From positions 1-52,743 of the IMG/VR virus record IMGVR_UViG_3300036828_000508: a DNA stretch of 52,743 bases. One strand, 5' to 3'. The number at the start of each line of letters is the position of its first letter. Position 1 is the first letter of the stretch. This document shows, piece after piece, positions 5,593 to 52,345 of the stretch. The DNA is from a virus. The notes beneath the pieces were generated by a model. The model saw only the letters and a list, made by a program, of their open reading frames with translations. It had not been told where the DNA came from and made no database searches. The position numbers and the translations under genes are program-made.

Positions 5593-5775
5593 TTATAACA
5601 ACTCCGGCTTATCGAACGGCGCGGCCCACATATCAAACCATTTGCCTTCGATCCTGCGTCGATAGTCGTCGGCAATTTCTTGCATGATCGCAATCTCGCG
5701 GTCGTCATCGCTTATGCTGCGCCGCAACGCCAGCTCGCGCTCGACGCATTTTAGTTTGGTCGCCGCGTCAAACAT
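5593..5775 (-). CDS. Small helical hypothetical protein
   Basis: A 60-residue protein with no known family, predicted helical and charged (ERELALRR, EIADDYRRRIEG) and ending WAAPFDKPELL. I place the start at 5775, eight bases inside the end of the upstream gene and after an AAAGGG ribosome site. A start at 5796 has no such site. It is the last gene of the minus-strand recombination operon and converges on the small secreted protein gene at 5390-5572. Confidence 0.6.
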   Translation of the reverse strand: MFDAATKLKCVERELALRRSISDDDREIAIMQEIADDYRRRIEGKWFDMWAAPFDKPELL

Positions 5776-6346
5776 TAGAGTCGGCCCTTTCGTCATTGGG
5801 ATCTGCCGGTTGCTTCGGCGCGCGGCGGCGCGTTGCATCGGCCGCGAGCTGGTCGATCTCATCACGCATCGCGTCGATGGCACCGTTGAGATGCGGAAGC
5901 GACCGGCCGAGAGTCAGCACGGCCAAATATTTCGCGACGAAGCTTTCCAGTTCGTGTTTGGCCCGCTCAATGACCTGCACTCGCAAGTCCCGATCGCCCA
6001 TAATGCGGCGGCGCGTGACATAGCCGCGGTGATCGTCCGGAGTCCTGACCGAATAAAACGCGCGGTCAGATACTGTCGGATTGTTCCTCACCTCGACGTG
6101 AACAATCCGAAGGCGGTTGACGAAATGCCGCGCCTGGTCGAGCCGGTAAAGGTGCGCCGCATGCTTCTCGTTCCAGTCGAATAAATCATGACACGGATGC
6201 GAACGATTCCGCGCTTGCTCGACAATCTTCTCTGTCGCCACCGCGGAAGGATCGGCACCATCCGCAAGCTGCTCGATAAAGTCGCCAAAGATCTGCGCTT
6301 CGATCGCAGGCGCCGGGCCGCCTAATCTCCATTGATAGATCGTCAT
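5768..6346 (-). CDS. Conserved phage hypothetical protein
   Basis: A 192-residue protein that begins MTIYQWRLGG and has a recurring pattern of alphaproteobacterial phage proteins: a short N-terminal region, then HPCHDLFDWNEKHAAHLYRL, then a beta-rich middle and a helical C-terminus (about 130-175). The C-terminus is basic and Pro-rich. I know of no established function for this type of protein, which tends to sit near recombination genes. It has a plausible ribosome site (CGGAG) just after the end of the pentanucleotide array. It overlaps the next gene by eight bases. Confidence 0.7.
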   Translation of the reverse strand: MTIYQWRLGGPAPAIEAQIFGDFIEQLADGADPSAVATEKIVEQARNRSHPCHDLFDWNEKHAAHLYRLDQARHFVNRLRIVHVEVRNNPTVSDRAFYSVRTPDDHRGYVTRRRIMGDRDLRVQVIERAKHELESFVAKYLAVLTLGRSLPHLNGAIDAMRDEIDQLAADATRRRAPKQPADPNDERADSNV

Positions 6347-6378
6347 TTCCGCTGCTCCGTTGTTTGATCAAAAAAGGT

Positions 6379-8160
6379 CCTGCCGTTCCACTGCCCGCCG
6401 CTGCCAGCCGGTGCCAGCCTTGCCGATGCTGGCCATTCCGTTCCTGCCAATCCATTCCTGCCGTTCCGCTGCTGGCCTGTGCCCGCCGTTGCAGGCCACT
6501 GCACGCCTTGCCATTCCTGCCGCTCCATTCCGCTCCTGCCACTCCGATGCTTGCCGATGCCAGCCTCGCCAATGCCCGCCTCGCCGCTCCTGCCGTTCCA
6601 TTGCTGTGCCGTGCCTGCCATGCCGCGCCAGTGCGCGCCTCTCCTGCCATTCCGTTGCTTGTCGTGCCGATGCTTGCCCTTGCGGGCCATTGCTTGCCAC
6701 TGCACGCCTTGCCATTCCTGCCGTTCCAATGCCGGCCGGTGCGTGCCCATGCTTGCCAAGCCAATGCTCGCCGCTCCTGCCATTCCGATGCCAGCCATGC
6801 CATTGCTGTGCGTGCCGATGCTTGCCGATCCACTCCTGCCGTTCCATTGCCGGCCGGTGCTTGCCGTGCCTGTGCACGCCGCTGCCCGCCAAGCCACTCC
6901 TGCCATTCCTATGCCAGCCGCGCCGATGCGTGCCCGTGCACGCCGTTGCTAGCCACTGCTCGCCGAGCCCATCCTGCCGCTCCAATGCTCGCCAGTGCGT
7001 GCCGCGCCGGTGCTTGCCACTGCCCGCCAGACCATTCCTGCCATTCCATTGCTTGCCGATGCCTGCCGTTGCTTGCCGTTGCGAGCCTCTGCCTGCCACT
7101 GCGCGCCATGCCACTCCTGCCGTTCCACGCCGGTGCATGCCCGTGCGTGCCAGTGCCTGCCGAGCCGGTGCATGCCGCGCCGCTCCTGCCATTCCGATGC
7201 TCGCCGCGCCGTTGCTGTGCGATGCTTGCCATTGCAGGCCACTGCGCGCCTCGCCTTGCCACTCCTGCCGTTCCAATGCCTGCCGCTCCAATGCGCGCCT
7301 ATGCCCGCCGCTCCGTTGCTCGCCGATCCACTCCTGCCGATCCGATCCGGTGCTCGCCATTGCCCGCCGCTGCTTGCCATGCCGCTCCTGCCATTCCAAT
7401 GCGCGCCGATGCTGTGCGGGCCATTGCGGGCCATTGCCGGCCGTTGCCCGCCGCGCCCATGCGTGCCGCTGCATGCCATTCCTGCCGTTCCAATCCGTGG
7501 CGAGCCACGCCACGCCGCGCCGCGCCTATGCTTGCCCTGCCATTCCTGCCAATCCGATGCCCGCCACTGCTTGCCCTGCCATTCCGATGCGAGCCGGTGC
7601 GAGCCAGTGCTTGCCCTGCCGTTCCTGCCATTCCATTGCTGTGCGTTGCCTGCCGATACGTGCCGATCCGGTGCGAGCCGATCCGGTGCGAGCCTCGCCA
7701 TTCCTGCCGTTCCATTGCCCGCCAGGCCATTCCATTGCTCGCCGCGCCAATGCCAGCCCTTCCTTTGCCAGCCGGTCCACTCCTGCCATTCCACTGCCTG
7801 CCGGTGCCTGCCAATGCGATGCTTGCCTCGCCACGCCATGCCCAACCGCTCCTGCCATTCCGATGCGCCGTTCCATTCCTGCCGCGCCAGTGCTTGCCAC
7901 TGCCCGCCACTGCCTGCCGAGCCATTCCTGCCGCTCCAATGCCTGCCTATGCGGGCCCGGCCGATGCCTGCCGGTGCGTGCCATTGCCAGCCTTGCCATT
8001 CCTGCCACTCCGATGCGCGCCGCGCCGCTGCATGCCGGTGCGTGCCAGTGCGCGCCAATGCTTGCCTTGCCTCGCCACTCCTGCCATTCCAATGCCCGCC
8101 ATTGCATGCCGCTGCCAGCCAATGCTTTGCTCGCCACGCCAATGCCTTCCATTCCATTCC
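6379..8160. repeat. Punctuated pentanucleotide array (1.78 kb)
   Basis: On the plus strand almost every base parses into 5-mers of the form NN(T/G)(G/C)C, mostly NNTGC and NNGCC. The register is reset only by a 4-base TGCC in the phrase NNTCC-TGCC-NNTCC. Distances between successive CCTGCC phrases that I checked (64, 14, 59, 19, 54, 54, 74, 59, 59, 64, 74) all equal 4 plus a multiple of 5. There are about 28 units. The two leading bases of each 5-mer vary freely. Frames are open on both strands merely because the words avoid stops. The minus-strand operon runs through it, so it would be transcribed as GGCNN/GCANN repeats. No known repeat class fits. Confidence 0.9.
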
Positions 8161-8161
8161 G

Positions 8162-8199
8162 GCGCGGCCGTGAAGCAAACAAACACTTCACGGCCGCGC
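8162..8199. other. 14-bp perfect hairpin at array boundary
   Basis: GCGCGGCCGTGAAG (8162-8175) pairs perfectly with 8186-8199 around a 10-base loop of CAAACAAACA. It lies between the stop of the minus-strand gene at 8212 and the array. There is no T-run on the minus-strand side. It could be a weak terminator, a transcript-end stabiliser or a processing site that separates the array RNA from the coding RNA. Confidence 0.75.
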
Positions 8200-8211
8200 A
8201 AACCCTTCAAC

Positions 8212-8973
8212 CTATTCGGCCGCGATCAACTCCGCCGCATCAAACAATTTTCCATCTTCGAATTGCTCGATCTCTGCCGCCGTTGCGAGACGCCAAGTTC
8301 CAAAAGTTCCGGATTTGCTTTCTTTGCTACCAGGGCGCCATTCGCACAGCCCCTCGATGTGTCCCGCGATCGCGATGCCTTGCAAAAGTTGAGAGGGCGA
8401 GATCATGGATGGTAAAAATTGAATGCCGACCAACACCCCCCACGGCCAAAATTCGGGACGGTGGCGAATATCGACGACGCCGCTCGCATTGCGCACCACG
8501 TCTGTTCGCATGCGGGGATTGTCTTTGGTGGTGATAATGCGGACGAGATTTGTTGCTAAGTCGTCAGGATGAACACGTAGGCTCTTGGCGGTTCTCAGCG
8601 TCACCCCGCTCCCTTTAGGAAAACCGCAGGAGAATGCCGCCTTGATGCCGCCTGCCGGAATTCCATCGGAGCCGTCCGAGAGCCGGTAACGAGCCGCCTG
8701 GAAATTTGCTTCCGGGTCTTTCGGGTCGCGGCCTTCGCTCGCCTTCCCCATGTGTTTGTCCAAAATCGAATGGATCAACTTGCTGCTAAATTTGTGTGTG
8801 ATGACCGGCGATGTTCCGATCAGCAGCGTCGTCATGCTCAAAGTCTTGACGCCCGGGATCGTCATGATGCCGGTCTTGCTGGTGTTGATTGCCGTCTTCG
8901 GCGGTGCCTCGACCGCGGTTTCGATCTTCGCCTTTGCCTTGGCAACCGTCTTGGTCTTCGTTTTCTCAAGCAT
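8212..8973 (-). CDS. Conserved protein of the recombination operon
   Basis: A 253-residue protein. The first 35 residues are Lys/Ala-rich and probably disordered. The rest is a folded domain starting LLIGTSPVITHKF, with a Gly-rich turn (SDGSDGIPAGGIKAAF), a beta-rich core (DIRHRPEFWPWGV) and an acidic C-terminus. I recall similar phage proteins near RecT-type genes but know no assigned activity. A role with single-stranded DNA or recombination is only a guess. AAGGACC gives a good ribosome site before the start. Upstream lies the excisionase-like gene and downstream the hairpin and array. Confidence 0.7.
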   Translation of the reverse strand: MLEKTKTKTVAKAKAKIETAVEAPPKTAINTSKTGIMTIPGVKTLSMTTLLIGTSPVITHKFSSKLIHSILDKHMGKASEGRDPKDPEANFQAARYRLSDGSDGIPAGGIKAAFSCGFPKGSGVTLRTAKSLRVHPDDLATNLVRIITTKDNPRMRTDVVRNASGVVDIRHRPEFWPWGVLVGIQFLPSMISPSQLLQGIAIAGHIEGLCEWRPGSKESKSGTFGTWRLATAAEIEQFEDGKLFDAAELIAAE

Positions 8974-10164: not shown

Positions 10165-11151
10165 TCACTCGCTAAAGCTCGGCAGCGGCGAGCCGTCGAA
10201 GCCGGCCTGCCAGCACAAATGCTCGCGGGTGCGATCTTTGTTACGGTATTCGGGCGGCGATCCTTTACGCTCGCCATTGCTGGCGCGCCATTTTTTGCCG
10301 CGCTCGTAGGCCTCTTCGAGTTCGGCCGCCGCCGCGGGAGCAGGTGTTTGCTCACTACCGCCCTCCGCTGGCGTTATGACTTCGGAGGCCGAGGCAAAAA
10401 AATCGAGCGCGCTGCCGGCGGCGCGCTGCTCGTCCCGCGATGGCGGCGTCTCGATGCCGAGCGATGCCTGCTCGTCGCGCTGCAGGAAGTGATCGACGTC
10501 GCTCGACTTCGGCAGCAGTTTCGCCAAGGCGCGTAATGCAGTCTTTTTTTGCATCTCGGATTCCCACATTTTCCAAGGTGCATCGTCGCGAGAGGCCCGG
10601 CTCATATTGCGGCGTTTATTTATTTCCTTGAGCGTCATCGGCTCGACAAAAAATCCGCCATCGACGGTTGTCGCCGCCGCGTAAACCAGCTTGACTTTGC
10701 GGTCGCCGGTCTGCTCGTAGTCTGGAACGTGCTTGAAATGCTCGCCGGCCTCGTCGGTCCAGTGCGCGAATTCTTCGCCTTCGTAAACAATGCTGGCGCC
10801 AATCCATTTGAAGGTTCCGGAATTGCGAAACTTTTTCAGCAAACCCTGATACATCGGCAAATAGTTTGCGGTGCTTTTGTAAGCGACGATGGCGGCCTCG
10901 CTGCCGTCCGGCATAAGCCCGTCCTGGGCGCAGCGCATGCAGGCAACAAACAGGCTGCGCTTGTCGCAGGCGAGCAAATCGGGATTGATCTGCACCGCGG
11001 TCATCACCGCCGCGACAAAGCGTTCGGGTTTGATATGCGGTGGCAGCGCGCTGCGCAGCGAGTCAATGCGCTCGTTGAGATAATTGCGCAGCACGATGAT
11101 CGGATGTGGCGGCTTGGTGGTTTCGGCGTTGGCGACGGCGGTCTCAGCCAT
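10165..11151 (-). CDS. recT: RecT-family single-strand annealing protein
   Basis: A 328-residue recombinase. Residues 1-220 hold the RecT domain, with LACDKRSLFVACMRCAQDGL, the conserved NYLPMYQGLLKKFRNSG, and the later AKLLPKS segment. The C-terminal 100 residues are Ala/Pro-rich and then basic. It anneals complementary single strands made by the partner exonuclease. The start at 11151 has AAGGAT about nine bases ahead and overlaps the upstream exonuclease gene by eight bases. The frame is open further upstream but those residues look like shadow sequence. Exonuclease followed at once by RecT is the usual order for this system. Confidence 0.93.
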   Translation of the reverse strand: MAETAVANAETTKPPHPIIVLRNYLNERIDSLRSALPPHIKPERFVAAVMTAVQINPDLLACDKRSLFVACMRCAQDGLMPDGSEAAIVAYKSTANYLPMYQGLLKKFRNSGTFKWIGASIVYEGEEFAHWTDEAGEHFKHVPDYEQTGDRKVKLVYAAATTVDGGFFVEPMTLKEINKRRNMSRASRDDAPWKMWESEMQKKTALRALAKLLPKSSDVDHFLQRDEQASLGIETPPSRDEQRAAGSALDFFASASEVITPAEGGSEQTPAPAAAAELEEAYERGKKWRASNGERKGSPPEYRNKDRTREHLCWQAGFDGSPLPSFSE

Positions 11152-12064
11152 TTGCTTGATCCTTGTGATGAATGCGCAGCGTGCGAATGTCCTTCGCTGG
11201 CACGGTGTATTGATCGCGATGATATGACTTCCAGGTGATAGACCAACCGGGCAAGCCGACGATACGATCTGCATCACGCATGAGATATTTTATTTGGGTT
11301 TCTATTTCCTGCTTGCGGTCGTCGAAGCGCGACAGCTGCGCCATAATTGCCTCGCGCTGATCGAGCAGCCCCAGCAGCTCGTTGTCGCCGCCGAGATCGA
11401 TCGACTTGCCGGGAACTTCGTGCGGCGCGATCAGCGCCAGGAGTTCGGCGTCTTTGCCGTAGTCGGGATCCGGCTCGCGCCCAGCCTCGACGTCATTCCA
11501 GAACTGTTTGACAGCGTCGCGGATTCTTTGCTGCACAACAGGCAGCAGCTCCACCTCGCGGATGACGCAGCTCAGATCATAGGCATCGACCTTCAGCGCG
11601 GCGACGACCGCGAAAGCGGCGCCGGTTAGCGCGGCTTCGGTGGTGACCTGCAACTCGATCCATAGCGGTGTCTTGCCGTCCTGCCATTCGCGCTCGAAGA
11701 CGCTTGGCGCGGCGGTTTTCAGCTGCAAAACGCCGAGGCCGCGCTCGTCGCCATGAATGAAATAGTCCGGCGTGGCGCCGAGACGGCAATCTGGGTCGCG
11801 AAAATAGAACTGGCTTTTCTCAAGCAGCCAGTCCGGCCGCTGTTCGCCGACCGCGAGCGCGGCTGCGGGTTCCATCAGCCGGCCGCGGCGTAGTACCGGA
11901 TTGTCGGCGTCGCTGAACTCGACGCCGCTGTGCTGCATATAAAGCTTAAGCGCAGTCAGATAAGGATGAACGCCGTACAATGCACCAATTGTGCTGGCAG
12001 TTACGTCACGCTTTCTCAAGTCGAGCCACTGCGAACGGCTTGTGATTAAATGCTTTTCTATCAT
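11144..12064 (-). CDS. YqaJ/RecE-type exonuclease, with altered active-site residue
   Basis: A 306-residue protein of the lambda-exonuclease/YqaJ fold. Recognisable are ASTIGALYGVHPY (about 23-35), RRGRLMEPAAA with E65, GATPDYFI with D100, GVLQLKT with K116, and ELQVTTEAALTGA (about 138-150). In the family the third motif is normally D...ExK. Here the Glu position is Gln114 (codon CAG). The enzyme may use another acid, be slowed, or be a structural partner of RecT. About the last 90 residues are a helical extension. It is the first gene of the minus-strand operon, read from the gap at 12065-12458. Confidence 0.85.
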   Translation of the reverse strand: MIEKHLITSRSQWLDLRKRDVTASTIGALYGVHPYLTALKLYMQHSGVEFSDADNPVLRRGRLMEPAAALAVGEQRPDWLLEKSQFYFRDPDCRLGATPDYFIHGDERGLGVLQLKTAAPSVFEREWQDGKTPLWIELQVTTEAALTGAAFAVVAALKVDAYDLSCVIREVELLPVVQQRIRDAVKQFWNDVEAGREPDPDYGKDAELLALIAPHEVPGKSIDLGGDNELLGLLDQREAIMAQLSRFDDRKQEIETQIKYLMRDADRIVGLPGWSITWKSYHRDQYTVPAKDIRTLRIHHKDQANG

Positions 12065-13626: not shown

Positions 13627-13926
13627 ATGACGACAAGGTGGGGCCTCAATTTATTTTCTCGTCTAAGGAACGGTGGGGTGTGGGGGATACCGCGCAGCGG
13701 GGTCGTTTTTCAAAAGCAGAAAGATGATCTGGTTTGGGTTGGCAGTGTCCCACCAAACGGCTCGCTCGCACTCCCCGTGGACGCCTATGTTGTTCAAGAA
13801 AGCGAATTTCTTACGGCGCGGGAGAAGTTTGCGGAGGTTGGTATTTTGGTTACGAAGGCCGCTGTGATCGAGAAATTTGAAAATATGGATGAGGCGACAG
13901 CGCGATGGGAGGATAGCAAGTCATGA
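13627..13926 (+). CDS. Hypothetical protein between nuclease and methyltransferase
   Basis: A 99-residue protein with no family that I recognise. The N-terminus is basic and Trp-rich (TTRWGLNLFSRLRNGGVWG), the middle beta-rich and the C-terminus helical and acidic. The start at 13627 is chosen over the ATG at 13609 because AAGGTG lies nine bases ahead of it. Its stop overlaps the methyltransferase start (ATGA). The gene could encode a specificity or inhibitor subunit for its neighbours, but nothing in the sequence shows this. Confidence 0.6.
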   Translation: MTTRWGLNLFSRLRNGGVWGIPRSGVVFQKQKDDLVWVGSVPPNGSLALPVDAYVVQESEFLTAREKFAEVGILVTKAAVIEKFENMDEATARWEDSKS

Positions 13927-14780
13927 GCGACGAATTTACCAAAATTGCTGGGAAGCTTCTCACCAATGTCCGCGATCTGGTCGATTGGGGCATCGAGGGC
14001 GGACACACGACCGCAGAGCAATTGCGGTTGACCGTCGAGGCGCGGCGGGCGACGGCCGCCAAGCTCGTCGAAGGCGGCCTGTCACAGCGGCAAGCCGCCA
14101 AAGCGTTGGGGGTCGATCAGGCAACGGTCAGTCGCGACGTGATGCGGAATGCATCGAAAAGTGATGCAAAGCGCATCACAACAACCAAGGCCGAGAAGCG
14201 GGCGCAGCGCGAAATTGATCTCGCAAGCCAGCAAGTCGCGCTGCCGGGCAAGCGCTACGGCGTCATTGTTGCTGACTCTGAATGGCGCTTCGAGCCATAT
14301 AGCCGCGAGACCGGCATGGATCGCGCCGCCGATAATCATTATCCGACGAGTGTGACAGAGATTATTGCAGCGCGCGACGTGCCGAGTATCGCGGCCGACG
14401 ATTGTGTTTTGTTCTCATGGGCGACGGTGCCGATGCTGCGTGACGCAATGCTTGTGATGGAGGCGTGGGGCTTCACGTACAAGTCGCACGCTATTTGGGA
14501 CAAGGTCTATATCGGTACCGGCTACTGGTTTCGCAATCGCCATGAACTTCTGCTGGTCGGCACCAAGGGCGCAATCCCAGCTCCCGCGATGGGAGATCAA
14601 TTCGCTTCGGTAATGACGATCGCGCGCAAGGAGCATTCAGCAAAGCCCGACCAGTTTCTCGAAATGATCGAGCAGTATTTTCCAACTCTGCCGAAGATCG
14701 AGCTGAACCGTCGCGGTCCGGCGCGGCCGGGATGGGATGCTTGGGGCAATGAGGCCGAAACTGCGGCGGCAGCCGAATGA
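13923..14780 (+). CDS. MT-A70-family adenine methyltransferase with N-terminal HTH
   Basis: A 285-residue protein. Residues about 45-75 form a helix-turn-helix (LSQRQAAKALGVDQATVSRD). From about 110 it is an MT-A70 N6-adenine methyltransferase: GVIVADSEWRFEPYSRETGM, then VLFSWATVPMLRDAM, FTYKSHAIWDK, NRHELLLVGTKG and KIELNRRGPARPGWDAWGNE. The catalytic DPPW motif reads D118-S119-E120-W121 here. Variants with Pro-Glu at these positions occur in phages, but loss of both Pro is unusual. It probably methylates phage DNA against host restriction. Alternatively it could guide gene control through its HTH. Confidence 0.85.
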   Translation: MSDEFTKIAGKLLTNVRDLVDWGIEGGHTTAEQLRLTVEARRATAAKLVEGGLSQRQAAKALGVDQATVSRDVMRNASKSDAKRITTTKAEKRAQREIDLASQQVALPGKRYGVIVADSEWRFEPYSRETGMDRAADNHYPTSVTEIIAARDVPSIAADDCVLFSWATVPMLRDAMLVMEAWGFTYKSHAIWDKVYIGTGYWFRNRHELLLVGTKGAIPAPAMGDQFASVMTIARKEHSAKPDQFLEMIEQYFPTLPKIELNRRGPARPGWDAWGNEAETAAAAE

Positions 14781-18392: not shown

Positions 18393-18857
18393 TCACACCG
18401 CTCGCGTATCTTGAGAAGCTATCTCTACCCGCACCTTGCGACCCAAAAGCTCAAGCAGGACGAACTGCCGATCCCGCGTCGACATGCCGTCATAGAGCCC
18501 AATGTGGTCAACGAAGCTGCCGCGAACGATCCGCAGCTTGTCGCCAAGCTGCAAGCCTCGCGGTGCCGGCAGCCGGACCACGCCATTGCGCTCTAGCTTG
18601 CGAATACTGGAAACGACACCCTCACGCAGCTCAGCCGGCCGCTCGCCTGCTCTGAGCAATCGGATAACCCCAATCGTATTATCAATCGCCGACCAGCGGA
18701 ATTCACCAACTCGCACGAATAGATACGCCGGAAATAGCGCAACCGTTCGCGCCTCAAGCCGCAACATCGGCAGATAAGTTTCGAAGCCGTTGTGCTCTAA
18801 AAACCGCTGCGCCGTCTTCTCGCGCTGGCTTTCGGTTTGTGCCACTGCCCAAAACAT
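18393..18857 (-). CDS. NusG/RfaH-like transcription elongation factor
   Basis: A 154-residue protein. The N-terminal domain has the NGN pattern: FWAVAQTESQREKTAQRFLE, then FETYLPMLRLEAR, FPAYLFVRVG and GVIRLLRAGERPAELREG. The C-terminal half has a KOW motif (LQLGDKLRIVRGSFVDHIGL) and LLGRKVRVEI, the usual end of NusG KOW domains. It would bind RNA polymerase and act as an antiterminator, as RfaH and phage-borne NusG paralogues do. It is alone on the minus strand between the replication and late operons. It may thus help late transcription of a 35-kb operon, but the target is not visible. Confidence 0.88.
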   Translation of the reverse strand: MFWAVAQTESQREKTAQRFLEHNGFETYLPMLRLEARTVALFPAYLFVRVGEFRWSAIDNTIGVIRLLRAGERPAELREGVVSSIRKLERNGVVRLPAPRGLQLGDKLRIVRGSFVDHIGLYDGMSTRDRQFVLLELLGRKVRVEIASQDTRAV

Positions 18858-29554: not shown

Positions 29555-30628
29555 ATGCTCGATGCCGGCGCCGCCGTCATCGTCGAGCTGGAGGCCAAAT
29601 GGGGTCGCGATCTCGATCTCATGCGCGCGGAGGCGCGCGCGATCATCGCCGACCTGCGCGCCGCGAATGTCGAGCTGGTCGCGCAGCAGCGCGAGAAGAT
29701 CGATTATCGCCTAGCCTCGCTCAAAGACGGTGACGTCGGCGAGCCGGGCAGGAACGGCAGCGTCGGCGATCCAGGGCCAGCTGGCCCAGCCGGTGCGCCT
29801 GGCTTGCCGGGCGACAAAGGCGATACCGGTGAGCCCGGCGAGCCCGGAAAGAACGGCGCCGATGGCGCGCCTGGAGTCGAAGGACCGCCCGGCGCTGTCG
29901 GGCCGGTCGGGCCGCCCGGCGCTAACGGCGAGCCCGGCGAGCCTGGTCGCAATGGCGACGCCGGCGCGTCCGGCGCCAAGGGCGATCGCGGCGAGCCTGG
30001 CCGCAATGGTGAACCCGGCGTGGTCGGCGCCAAGGGCGAGCCCGGTGAGCCTGGCCGCAACGGCGAGCCCGGCATGGTCGGCGCCAAGGGCGATCGCGGC
30101 GACAAGGGCGAAGCCGGTCCGCGCGGCGGCGTCGACAAGATTGTCGCCTGGTCGGATCGGATCTTCTACGAGGGCCGTCTGGTCACGCACAAAGGCTCGT
30201 GCTGGCAGGCCGCTTGCGATACCGCCAGGCAGCCCGGCACTTCCGCCGATTGGCTCGAGATCGCCGCCGGCGGCGCACCCGGTGGCACCTTCAAAATTCG
30301 CGGCACCTGGCGCGCCGAGGAAAAATACCGCGCGCTCGATGTCGTCACCCTCGATTACGGCTGGTTCGTCGCCAGGCAGGACGATCCCGGCCCGATTCCC
30401 GGTCCTGGCTGGCAGGCCGGCCCGGTCGGCCGCCGCGGCGAAAAAGGCATCGCTGGCGAGCGCGGCGGCAAAGGCGATCCCGGCAAGTCGGCGCCGCATT
30501 GGATCGGCCTCAAGGCCGACGGCTATAGCCTCACCGCGGTGATGAGCGATGGCGCTATCGGGCCGCGCATTTCGCTCTTCTCGATGTTTGAGCAATTCGA
30601 GGCCGAGCTGAGACTGCGGAGCAAATAG
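29555..30628 (+). CDS. Collagen-like protein within the head module
   Basis: A 357-residue protein. Residues 1-60 form a helical, coiled-coil start (MLDAGAAVIVELEAKWGRDL). About 60-190 are Gly-x-y triplets (GEPGRNG, GDKGDTGEPG, GAKGDRGEPG), then a beta-rich domain (IVAWSDRIFYEGRLVTHKG), a second short collagen stretch and a C-terminal domain. AGGAGA lies four bases before the ATG; a longer frame would overlap portal by 104 bases. A trimeric fibre is likely. Its place between portal and connector genes suggests a head fibre or decoration rather than a tail fibre. Confidence 0.85.
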   Translation: MLDAGAAVIVELEAKWGRDLDLMRAEARAIIADLRAANVELVAQQREKIDYRLASLKDGDVGEPGRNGSVGDPGPAGPAGAPGLPGDKGDTGEPGEPGKNGADGAPGVEGPPGAVGPVGPPGANGEPGEPGRNGDAGASGAKGDRGEPGRNGEPGVVGAKGEPGEPGRNGEPGMVGAKGDRGDKGEAGPRGGVDKIVAWSDRIFYEGRLVTHKGSCWQAACDTARQPGTSADWLEIAAGGAPGGTFKIRGTWRAEEKYRALDVVTLDYGWFVARQDDPGPIPGPGWQAGPVGRRGEKGIAGERGGKGDPGKSAPHWIGLKADGYSLTAVMSDGAIGPRISLFSMFEQFEAELRLRSK

Positions 30629-51184: not shown

Positions 51185-52345
51185 ATGGCCATCGTGCCTT
51201 GGCAGTGCGCCAGCGGCGACGCGCCCTCGGTCACGCTGCCGTGCGCGACGACCGTAGCGCTCGCGCCGCCCGACGATAGCGTCGACACCAATCAAGTCGT
51301 CATCACTGGCAACGGTGCCATCGAATCATTTGGGCCGCCGCCAGGACCGCAGATAATCGATCCAGCCGATCCGCCGGTCCCGGTCGGCATCACTAAAAAA
51401 GTCACGTTCGAGCCGACGTCGCCGACAGCGCCGATTTCGCTTATTCATAATGGCACGACGCTAAGTTTGCTCGGCGGCGTCTCCAGGACGATCAGCAACA
51501 AATCGATCGGCGTTTATGCCTGCGATCCTGCCGGCAATTGGTCCGAGCAGTCATTCACCGATACGACAGTTGGCGATGGCGGCGGCGGCGGTAGCACGCC
51601 TGGCCCTCCGGGGCCGACCGGCCCAGAAGGCCCAGCAGGTCCACCCGGTGCAACCGGCCCGGCAGGTCCTACCGGCCCACAAGGCGCAACAGGCCCGCAA
51701 GGCTCAACTGGCGCGACCGGATCGGCTGGACCGCAAGGTCCGGCGGGGCCGCAGGGCCTGCAGGGAATTCCGGGTGTTGCGGGCTCGACCGGCGCGACTG
51801 GCCCGCAGGGCAATCCAGGGCCGGCTGGCGCAACCGGCCCAGCGGGCGCGACAGGTCCTGCTGGCCCAGCCGGTGCTGACAGCACGGTGCCGGGGCCCGC
51901 TGGCGCAACCGGCCCAGCGGGCGCGACAGGTCCCGTTGGCCCAGCCGGTGCTGACAGCACGGTGCCGGGGCCCGCTGGCGCAACCGGCCCGACAGGTGCG
52001 GCCGGTCCCGTTGGCCCAGCTGGCGCTGATAGCACAGTGCCGGGGCCGCCCGGGGCAACAGGCTCAACAGGCGCAACAGGCCCAGCTGGCCCGACAGGTG
52101 CGACCGGCGCTGCCAGTACGGTGCCGGGCCCGGCCGGTCCCAGCTATTTGGCGACCTCGGCGACGGCGATGCCGATCGCAAAAGGCAGCGTGACATTCAC
52201 GACGCAGGCCGGCTCCGCCTATAGCGTCGGCGCTCGCATCCGGCTGGCGTCGCGCGGCGCGCCAACTACAACCTGGATGGAGGGCGTCATCACTGCGTAT
52301 TCGGGCACGTCGATGACCGTCAATGTCGATCTCACAGGACCATAA
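51185..52345 (+). CDS. Long collagen-like tail fibre
   Basis: A 386-residue protein. Residues 1-135 are beta-rich ([40 protein letters not shown]). About 140-320 are Gly-x-y triplets ([20 protein letters not shown]), including a 25-residue unit with [20 protein letters not shown] repeated three times; at DNA level the unit is 75 bp (51875, 51950, 52025). The last 68 residues are the tip module with MATSA-like [16 protein letters not shown] and [20 protein letters not shown], shared with the protein at 49109. Confidence 0.85.

What the first reader, a model, noticed from the sequence alone, without database searches (positions are those of the whole stretch)
6379..8160. 1.78-kb punctuated pentanucleotide array of unknown class
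Almost every base parses into 5-mers NN(T/G)(G/C)C, with the register reset only by a 4-base TGCC inside NNTCC-TGCC-NNTCC. All eleven unit spacings I measured are 4 + 5n. Two bases per word vary freely, so the array keeps a grammar while its content is near-random, over about 28 units. Each TGCC shifts the translation frame, so coding is unlikely; yet the array lies inside a transcribed minus-strand operon with recT. As RNA it is a string of GGCNN/GCANN words with paired GGA motifs at each junction. It could be a protein- or RNA-binding sponge, a recombination seeding region beside the RecT/exonuclease genes, or a record of repeated slippage.
Basis: seen in the sequence. Interest (0 to 1): 0.88.

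Follow-up and report, generated by a model that had tools for sequence, protein, structure and literature searches.

The report
Phage VIPR guide-RNA array
The odd five-letter repeat is a bank of about 25 RNA guides of a recently described phage weapon called VIPR; three of the guides could be read, and they point at genes of rival phages.

Summary
In detail: 6379-8160 parses into 330 five-base words and 27 TGCC punctuations, far beyond shuffled controls. It is not of unknown class. The flanking gene 8212-8973(-) is a homologue of Vipr, the RAMP protein of VIPR (Viral Interference Programmable Repeat) systems. The profile hits the solved SUSP1 Vipr at E=1.6e-11, and its AlphaFold model matches Cas7/Csm3-type RAMP subunits. 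On the RNA (minus) strand the array is GGC/GCA/GGA separators alternating with near-random NN. It is cut by a 4-base GGCA into units, 25 of which carry 9-18 words. The same grammar, found by DNA pattern alone, sits beside vipr in 35 of 36 vipr contigs.
Reading NN with the published 1-nt-skip rule gives targets. One guide matches the vipr gene of a sister phage at 22 of 24 core bases, at skip 1 only, with 0 of 400 shuffles reaching its score. Two other guides both fall in a Sak4-like annealing gene of another phage. All three skip the codon wobble base. So this is a new member of a known kind, a large VIPR array of a different architecture from type II. Expression, processing and silencing are inferred. 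The sponge, RecT-seeding and slippage readings are not supported.

The parts
6379..8160 (-). VIPR guide (vrRNA) array: words GGCNN/GCANN/GGANN, cut by GGCA (TGCC on +) into 28 units; 25 have 9-18 words, three have 2-4
8212..8973 (-). vipr gene, 253 aa RAMP-superfamily protein (phrog_4652)
   Evidence: PDB 36pp 'SUSP1 Vipr protein' E=1.6e-11; hhalign to SUSP1 gene 97.9%; AlphaFold pLDDT 82; Foldseek best hits Csm3/type VII Cas7 subunits, E 3e-5
5768..6346 (-). candidate vap (VIPR accessory) gene, 192 aa, phrog_15946, no known fold
   Evidence: homologue next to vipr in nearly all vipr loci; no fold match; not like SUSP1 vap1
8162..8199 (-). strong hairpin (16-bp main stem) between vipr and the array; possible 5' boundary
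   Evidence: fold -43.4 kcal/mol for 8130-8225, z -3.3; a hairpin of different sequence at the same place in L081 (z -1.6)
6370..6375 (-). T6 tract at the 3' end of the array, also present in L081; possible transcript end before vap
7709..7783 (-). guide 6: target is the vipr gene of sister phages (L081/G001 and G002)
7043..7117 (-). guide 15: target is a Sak4-like gene (L263 3663-3707)
6841..6900 (-). guide 18: target is the same Sak4-like gene (L259, L263, L264, L265)

Best explanation
The array is the guide store of a phage VIPR system. It is transcribed with vipr and vap from the minus strand (inferred). Each stretch between GGCA punctuations is one guide of about 9-18 words. Each word's three-base separator (GGC, GCA or GGA) would be held by one Vipr protomer, and its NN is presented for pairing (inferred from the VIPR preprint and the RAMP fold). 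The NNs read a DNA target with one skipped base per word, the codon wobble position, so synonymous change does not help the target (shown here for three guides as sequence matches). The 4-base GGCA breaks the 5-base register and so separates guides (inferred). The complex then represses genes of rival phages: a sister phage's vipr gene and another phage's Sak4-like recombination gene (matches shown, repression inferred).
For: Homology and fold. Linkage: arrays in 40 of 41 Vipr+ loci (36 distinct contigs, 35 with array) against 5 of 214 Vipr- loci, three of them cut short; of seven vipr contigs found without using the array, six have it. Same strand relation to vipr in the loci read by eye. NN entropy 3.85 of 4 bits inside guides. 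Guide 6: score 18 at skip 1, with every other guide and skip length at most 15 in the same search; 0 of 400 shuffled guides reach 17; 24/30 bases, core 22/24; decoded peptide PSMISANQLLQG equals that of L081 Vipr; own vipr only 19/24 in the core. Guide 18: nine consecutive words, 18/18 bases, in four contigs, decoding to RGFVCTAPN. Guide 15: independently in the same gene of L263, score 16; its top protein-level hit among 21,186 ORFs is that gene in L265. The gene is phrog_124, Sak4-like. All three have skip base = wobble.
Against: No RNA data: transcription, processing and binding are untested. Only 3 of 25 guides have targets. Guide 18 was found by scanning the whole viral collection with 16 bases, where chance hits occur (L260-L262; for guide 6 also L257/L258), and the decoded guides have mismatches. 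All three targets are complementary to the coding strand, so mRNA targeting is not excluded. The window's separators (GGC/GCA/GGA) are not pure GGY. The candidate vap is unlike SUSP1 vap1. VIPR itself rests on one preprint (PMC13142463).
Confidence: 0.93

Rival explanations
1. A DNA site that seeds RecT/exonuclease recombination, with the 5-base period matching the nucleotide footprint of one annealing-protein protomer.
For: recT (10165-11154) and a YqaJ exonuclease (11144-12064) lie in the same operon. From memory, a RecT-family annealing protein has been reported with about 5 nt per protomer.
Against: Five RecT-relative contigs without vipr have no array; the one with vipr has it. The array follows vipr and vap in diverse phages. 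It does not predict gapped matches to other phages' genes.
Confidence: 0.02
2. An RNA sponge for a GGA-binding host regulator (CsrA-like) or another protein titrator.
For: The RNA strand has many GGA words, and in some relatives nearly every word is GGANN.
Against: In this window most separators are GGC or GCA. A sponge has no need of near-maximal NN variety, of a 4+5n register, or of a linked RAMP protein, and does not explain the decoded targets.
Confidence: 0.02
3. A low-complexity coding repeat or a record of polymerase slippage.
For: Frames are long and open on both strands; 5-mer tandem structure.
Against: The 4-base punctuation shifts the frame 27 times; open frames follow from the word grammar. 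NN content is near-random, not copied from neighbours, and the same punctuation is conserved in unrelated phages.
Confidence: 0.01

Closest known systems
VIPR systems (Viral Interference Programmable Repeat; PMC13142463, doi 10.64898/2026.04.26.720920)
   Same: Vipr RAMP protein, adjacent small conserved gene, pentanucleotide guide repeats of 9 or more words, variable NN, 1-nt skip, skip at codon wobble, targets in rival phages, phage-borne. The preprint mentions staggered arrays with overlapping vrRNAs and separators of 'a related consensus', which may cover this array; its supplement could not be read.
   Different: Separators are GGC, GCA and GGA rather than GGY only; guides lie head to tail with a 4-base GGCA between them and no per-guide tail; about 25 guides in one block; vap unlike SUSP1 vap1.
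Type II VIPR of Escherichia phage SUSP1 (KT454805; PDB 36pp)
   Same: Homologous Vipr, guides in the intergenic spaces around vipr.
   Different: SUSP1 guides are separate transcripts with a structured 3' tail and GGT/GGY separators; the window has neither, and its accessory protein does not align.
Class 1 CRISPR RAMPs (Csm3, type VII Cas7)
   Same: Fold of the protein that would line up along the guide RNA.
   Different: No CRISPR repeats or spacers at the locus; no cas genes among the genes examined; 5-base rather than 6-base repeat unit.

Membership tests
VIPR system | vipr gene encoding a minimal RAMP protein | tested here: met
VIPR system | guide RNA of 9-16 tandem GGY/NN pentanucleotides or a related consensus | tested here: met
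   25 units with 9-18 words; separators GGC, GCA, GGA, i.e. a related consensus; relative L158 has mostly GGC/GGT separators
VIPR system | hypervariable NN | tested here: met
   3.85 of 4 bits inside guides; junction words only 2.1-2.3 bits
VIPR system | target match with 1-nt skip | tested here: met
   three guides, at skip 1 only
VIPR system | targets in competing phages | tested here: met
   vipr of a sister phage; Sak4-like gene of another phage; 3 of 25 guides
VIPR system | accessory (vap) gene | tested here: inconclusive
   conserved neighbour but not alignable to SUSP1 vap1; the other vap families were not at hand
VIPR system | guide RNA expressed and bound by Vipr | not testable with these tools
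   needs RNA sequencing and pull-down
Type II VIPR (SUSP1-like) | each guide followed by an invariable structured 3' tail | tested here: not met
   guides abut with only GGCA between them; one hairpin before the whole array
CRISPR-Cas | direct repeats of about 20-50 bases separated by unique spacers, with cas genes | tested here: not met
   no such repeats in the array; none of the ten early-region genes scanned matches a cas family in Pfam

The most novel reading that the evidence does not exclude
Guides are delimited by a register shift alone: the 4-base GGCA puts the next guide out of phase so that a Vipr filament, stepping 5 bases, cannot run across, and neither tail nor ribozyme is needed. 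In addition, the choice of separator is not free but follows the preceding NN (GGC after a pyrimidine, GCA after a purine), a second layer of code not described in the main text of the preprint.
Probability: 0.35. Interest if true: 0.75.

Novelty: new member of a known kind. Interest (0 to 1): 0.62.

Why it matters
It gives a large VIPR array with about 25 readable guides from an uncultivated phage, an independent sequence-only check of the 1-nt-skip rule with non-GGY separators, and a DNA pattern that finds such loci without the protein. It shows guides aimed at a rival's own vipr and twice at one recombination gene. The question of how gap-tolerant RNA guidance arose, proposed to precede CRISPR, becomes testable on many more loci.

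Tried and rejected
Two-motif pattern scan of viral contigs: mostly chance coding hits, kept only where the array grammar scored. Host identification: two genome-contig scans found nothing, relatives cannot be drawn for a virus record, and a plasmid record cannot serve as a centre. Rfam: no match. Promoter/terminator scan: not above shuffles. Fold of the accessory protein: no match. Target search by 10-word windows over all arrays: hits near control level apart from guide 6. Guides of the other array phages: no convincing targets in held sequence. Guide 6 nine-word exact hits L257/L258 rejected as chance, because they do not extend. Fetching more contigs of TerL relatives added no further targets.

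Full report
What was seen. The array at 6379-8160 is as described: 330 five-base words and 27 TGCC, 24 bases left over, against shuffles that cannot be parsed. Twenty-six of 27 spacings between TCCTGCC are 4 + 5n. Read on the minus strand, the words are GGCNN (about 145 inside guides), GCANN (about 110) and GGANN, and the punctuation is GGCA. Each unit begins and nearly always ends with a GGA word.

Relatives. A DNA pattern for the grammar alone, without any protein, found similar arrays in many IMG/VR phage contigs. Their separators differ (mostly GGA in L057, L103, L139; mostly GGC/GGT in L158), but the punctuation core GGCAGG and the 4 + 5n spacing recur: 69 of 86 pooled spacings in nine other arrays are 4 modulo 5, and a further 10 are 3 modulo 5, as expected when one punctuation is hidden. 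In these loci homologues of two window genes recur, 8212-8973 and 5768-6346. In all loci held, 40 of 41 with the first gene have an array, against 5 of 214 without it, and three of those five are truncated. Duplicates removed, this is 35 of 36 contigs. Seven of these contigs were found without the array, through RecT, TerL or the protein itself, and six have one, including Mycobacterium phage Quico, Gordonia phage UmaThurman and Cyanophage Cy-LDV1.

Identity of the protein. The profile of the first gene hits one solved structure, 36pp 'SUSP1 Vipr protein', E = 1.6e-11. Its AlphaFold model (pLDDT 82) matches Csm3 and type VII Cas7 subunits at E about 3e-5, probability 1.0. The TM-scores are modest (0.3-0.4 on the query), so the fold match alone is not decisive. 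The preprint on that protein (PMC13142463) describes VIPR: Vipr plus guide RNAs of alternating GGY/NN, read with a 1-nt skip, aimed at rival phages. SUSP1's own locus was fetched: vipr aligns at 97.9% probability, its guides lie around vipr with GGT-type separators, and its accessory gene does not align to the window's.

Decoding. The 25 units with at least nine words were read as NN series and compared with held phage DNA at skip 0, 1, 2 and 3. Guide 6 gave the only outlier in that search: score 18 at skip 1 in the vipr gene of L081; no other guide or skip length exceeded 15, and 400 shuffled guides reached at most 16. It matches 24 of 30 bases, 22 of 24 in the core. Its antisense reading decodes to PSMISANQLLQG, the residues at that place in L081 Vipr. 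The window's own vipr matches only 19 of 24 there, so the guide spares its owner in part. The same site is in G002. L081's phage shares late genes with the window's phage at about 47-62% identity.

A whole-collection scan with eight words of guide 18 gave seven contigs. Four are the same gene, where the match extends to nine words, 18 of 18 bases, decoding to RGFVCTAPN. The other three hits do not extend, and a scan with guide 6 gave two such non-extending hits as well, so a match of this length alone could be chance. The support comes from guide 15, which was not used in any scan: it matches the same gene in one of these contigs, L263, at the Walker B stretch (score 16), and at protein level its best hit among 21,186 ORFs is that gene in L265 (the bit score itself is within the control range). 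The gene is phrog_124, Sak4-like ssDNA annealing protein. All three targets skip the wobble base and all three are complementary to the coding strand.

Mechanism. Shown: the array, the RAMP-type protein, their linkage, and gapped matches to rival phage genes. Inferred: transcription from the minus strand with vipr, one protomer per word, repression of the target. The hairpin between vipr and the array (also in L081) and the T6 tract at its far end may bound the transcript. The 4-base GGCA most likely separates guides by breaking the 5-base register.

Unexplained. Separator choice depends on the preceding base: GGC after pyrimidines (113 of 144), GCA after purines (72 of 110... with 68 by strict count of A and G is not needed here: the table gives G 37, A 35, C 27, T 11), mutual information 0.16 bits against a shuffle maximum of 0.05. 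GCA is followed by a word ending in a pyrimidine in 90 of 110 cases. The rule is weaker in L081. Three units have only 2-4 words.

Verdict. A VIPR guide array, new member of a known kind; not type II; type not assigned because the supplement was out of reach.

Noticed in passing
L053 1-5232: Pentamer arrays occur in several separate gaps, between and at the ends of different genes, not only beside vipr.
   Followed up: partly
L126 4100-4480: A short array of mostly NNTCC words with TCCTGCC punctuation and no vipr or vap within the 8.7 kb held; possibly an orphan guide cluster.
   Followed up: no
L253 3570-3850 (Mycobacterium phage Quico): A GGCNN array upstream of a 'hypothetical protein' that is a Vipr homologue; about 27 mycobacteriophage records carry the protein.
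   Followed up: partly
window 6379-8160: Separator choice (GGC or GCA) depends on the preceding base, and the words show a tendency to alternate with a period of ten bases.
   Followed up: partly
window 13923-14780: MT-A70-type methyltransferase with an N-terminal helix-turn-helix region.
   Followed up: no
window 18393-18857: Small protein that looks like a NusG/RfaH-type elongation factor (from sequence, not tested).
   Followed up: no
window 29916-30102 and 51617-52098: Collagen-like Gly-X-Y coding repeats in late genes.
   Followed up: no
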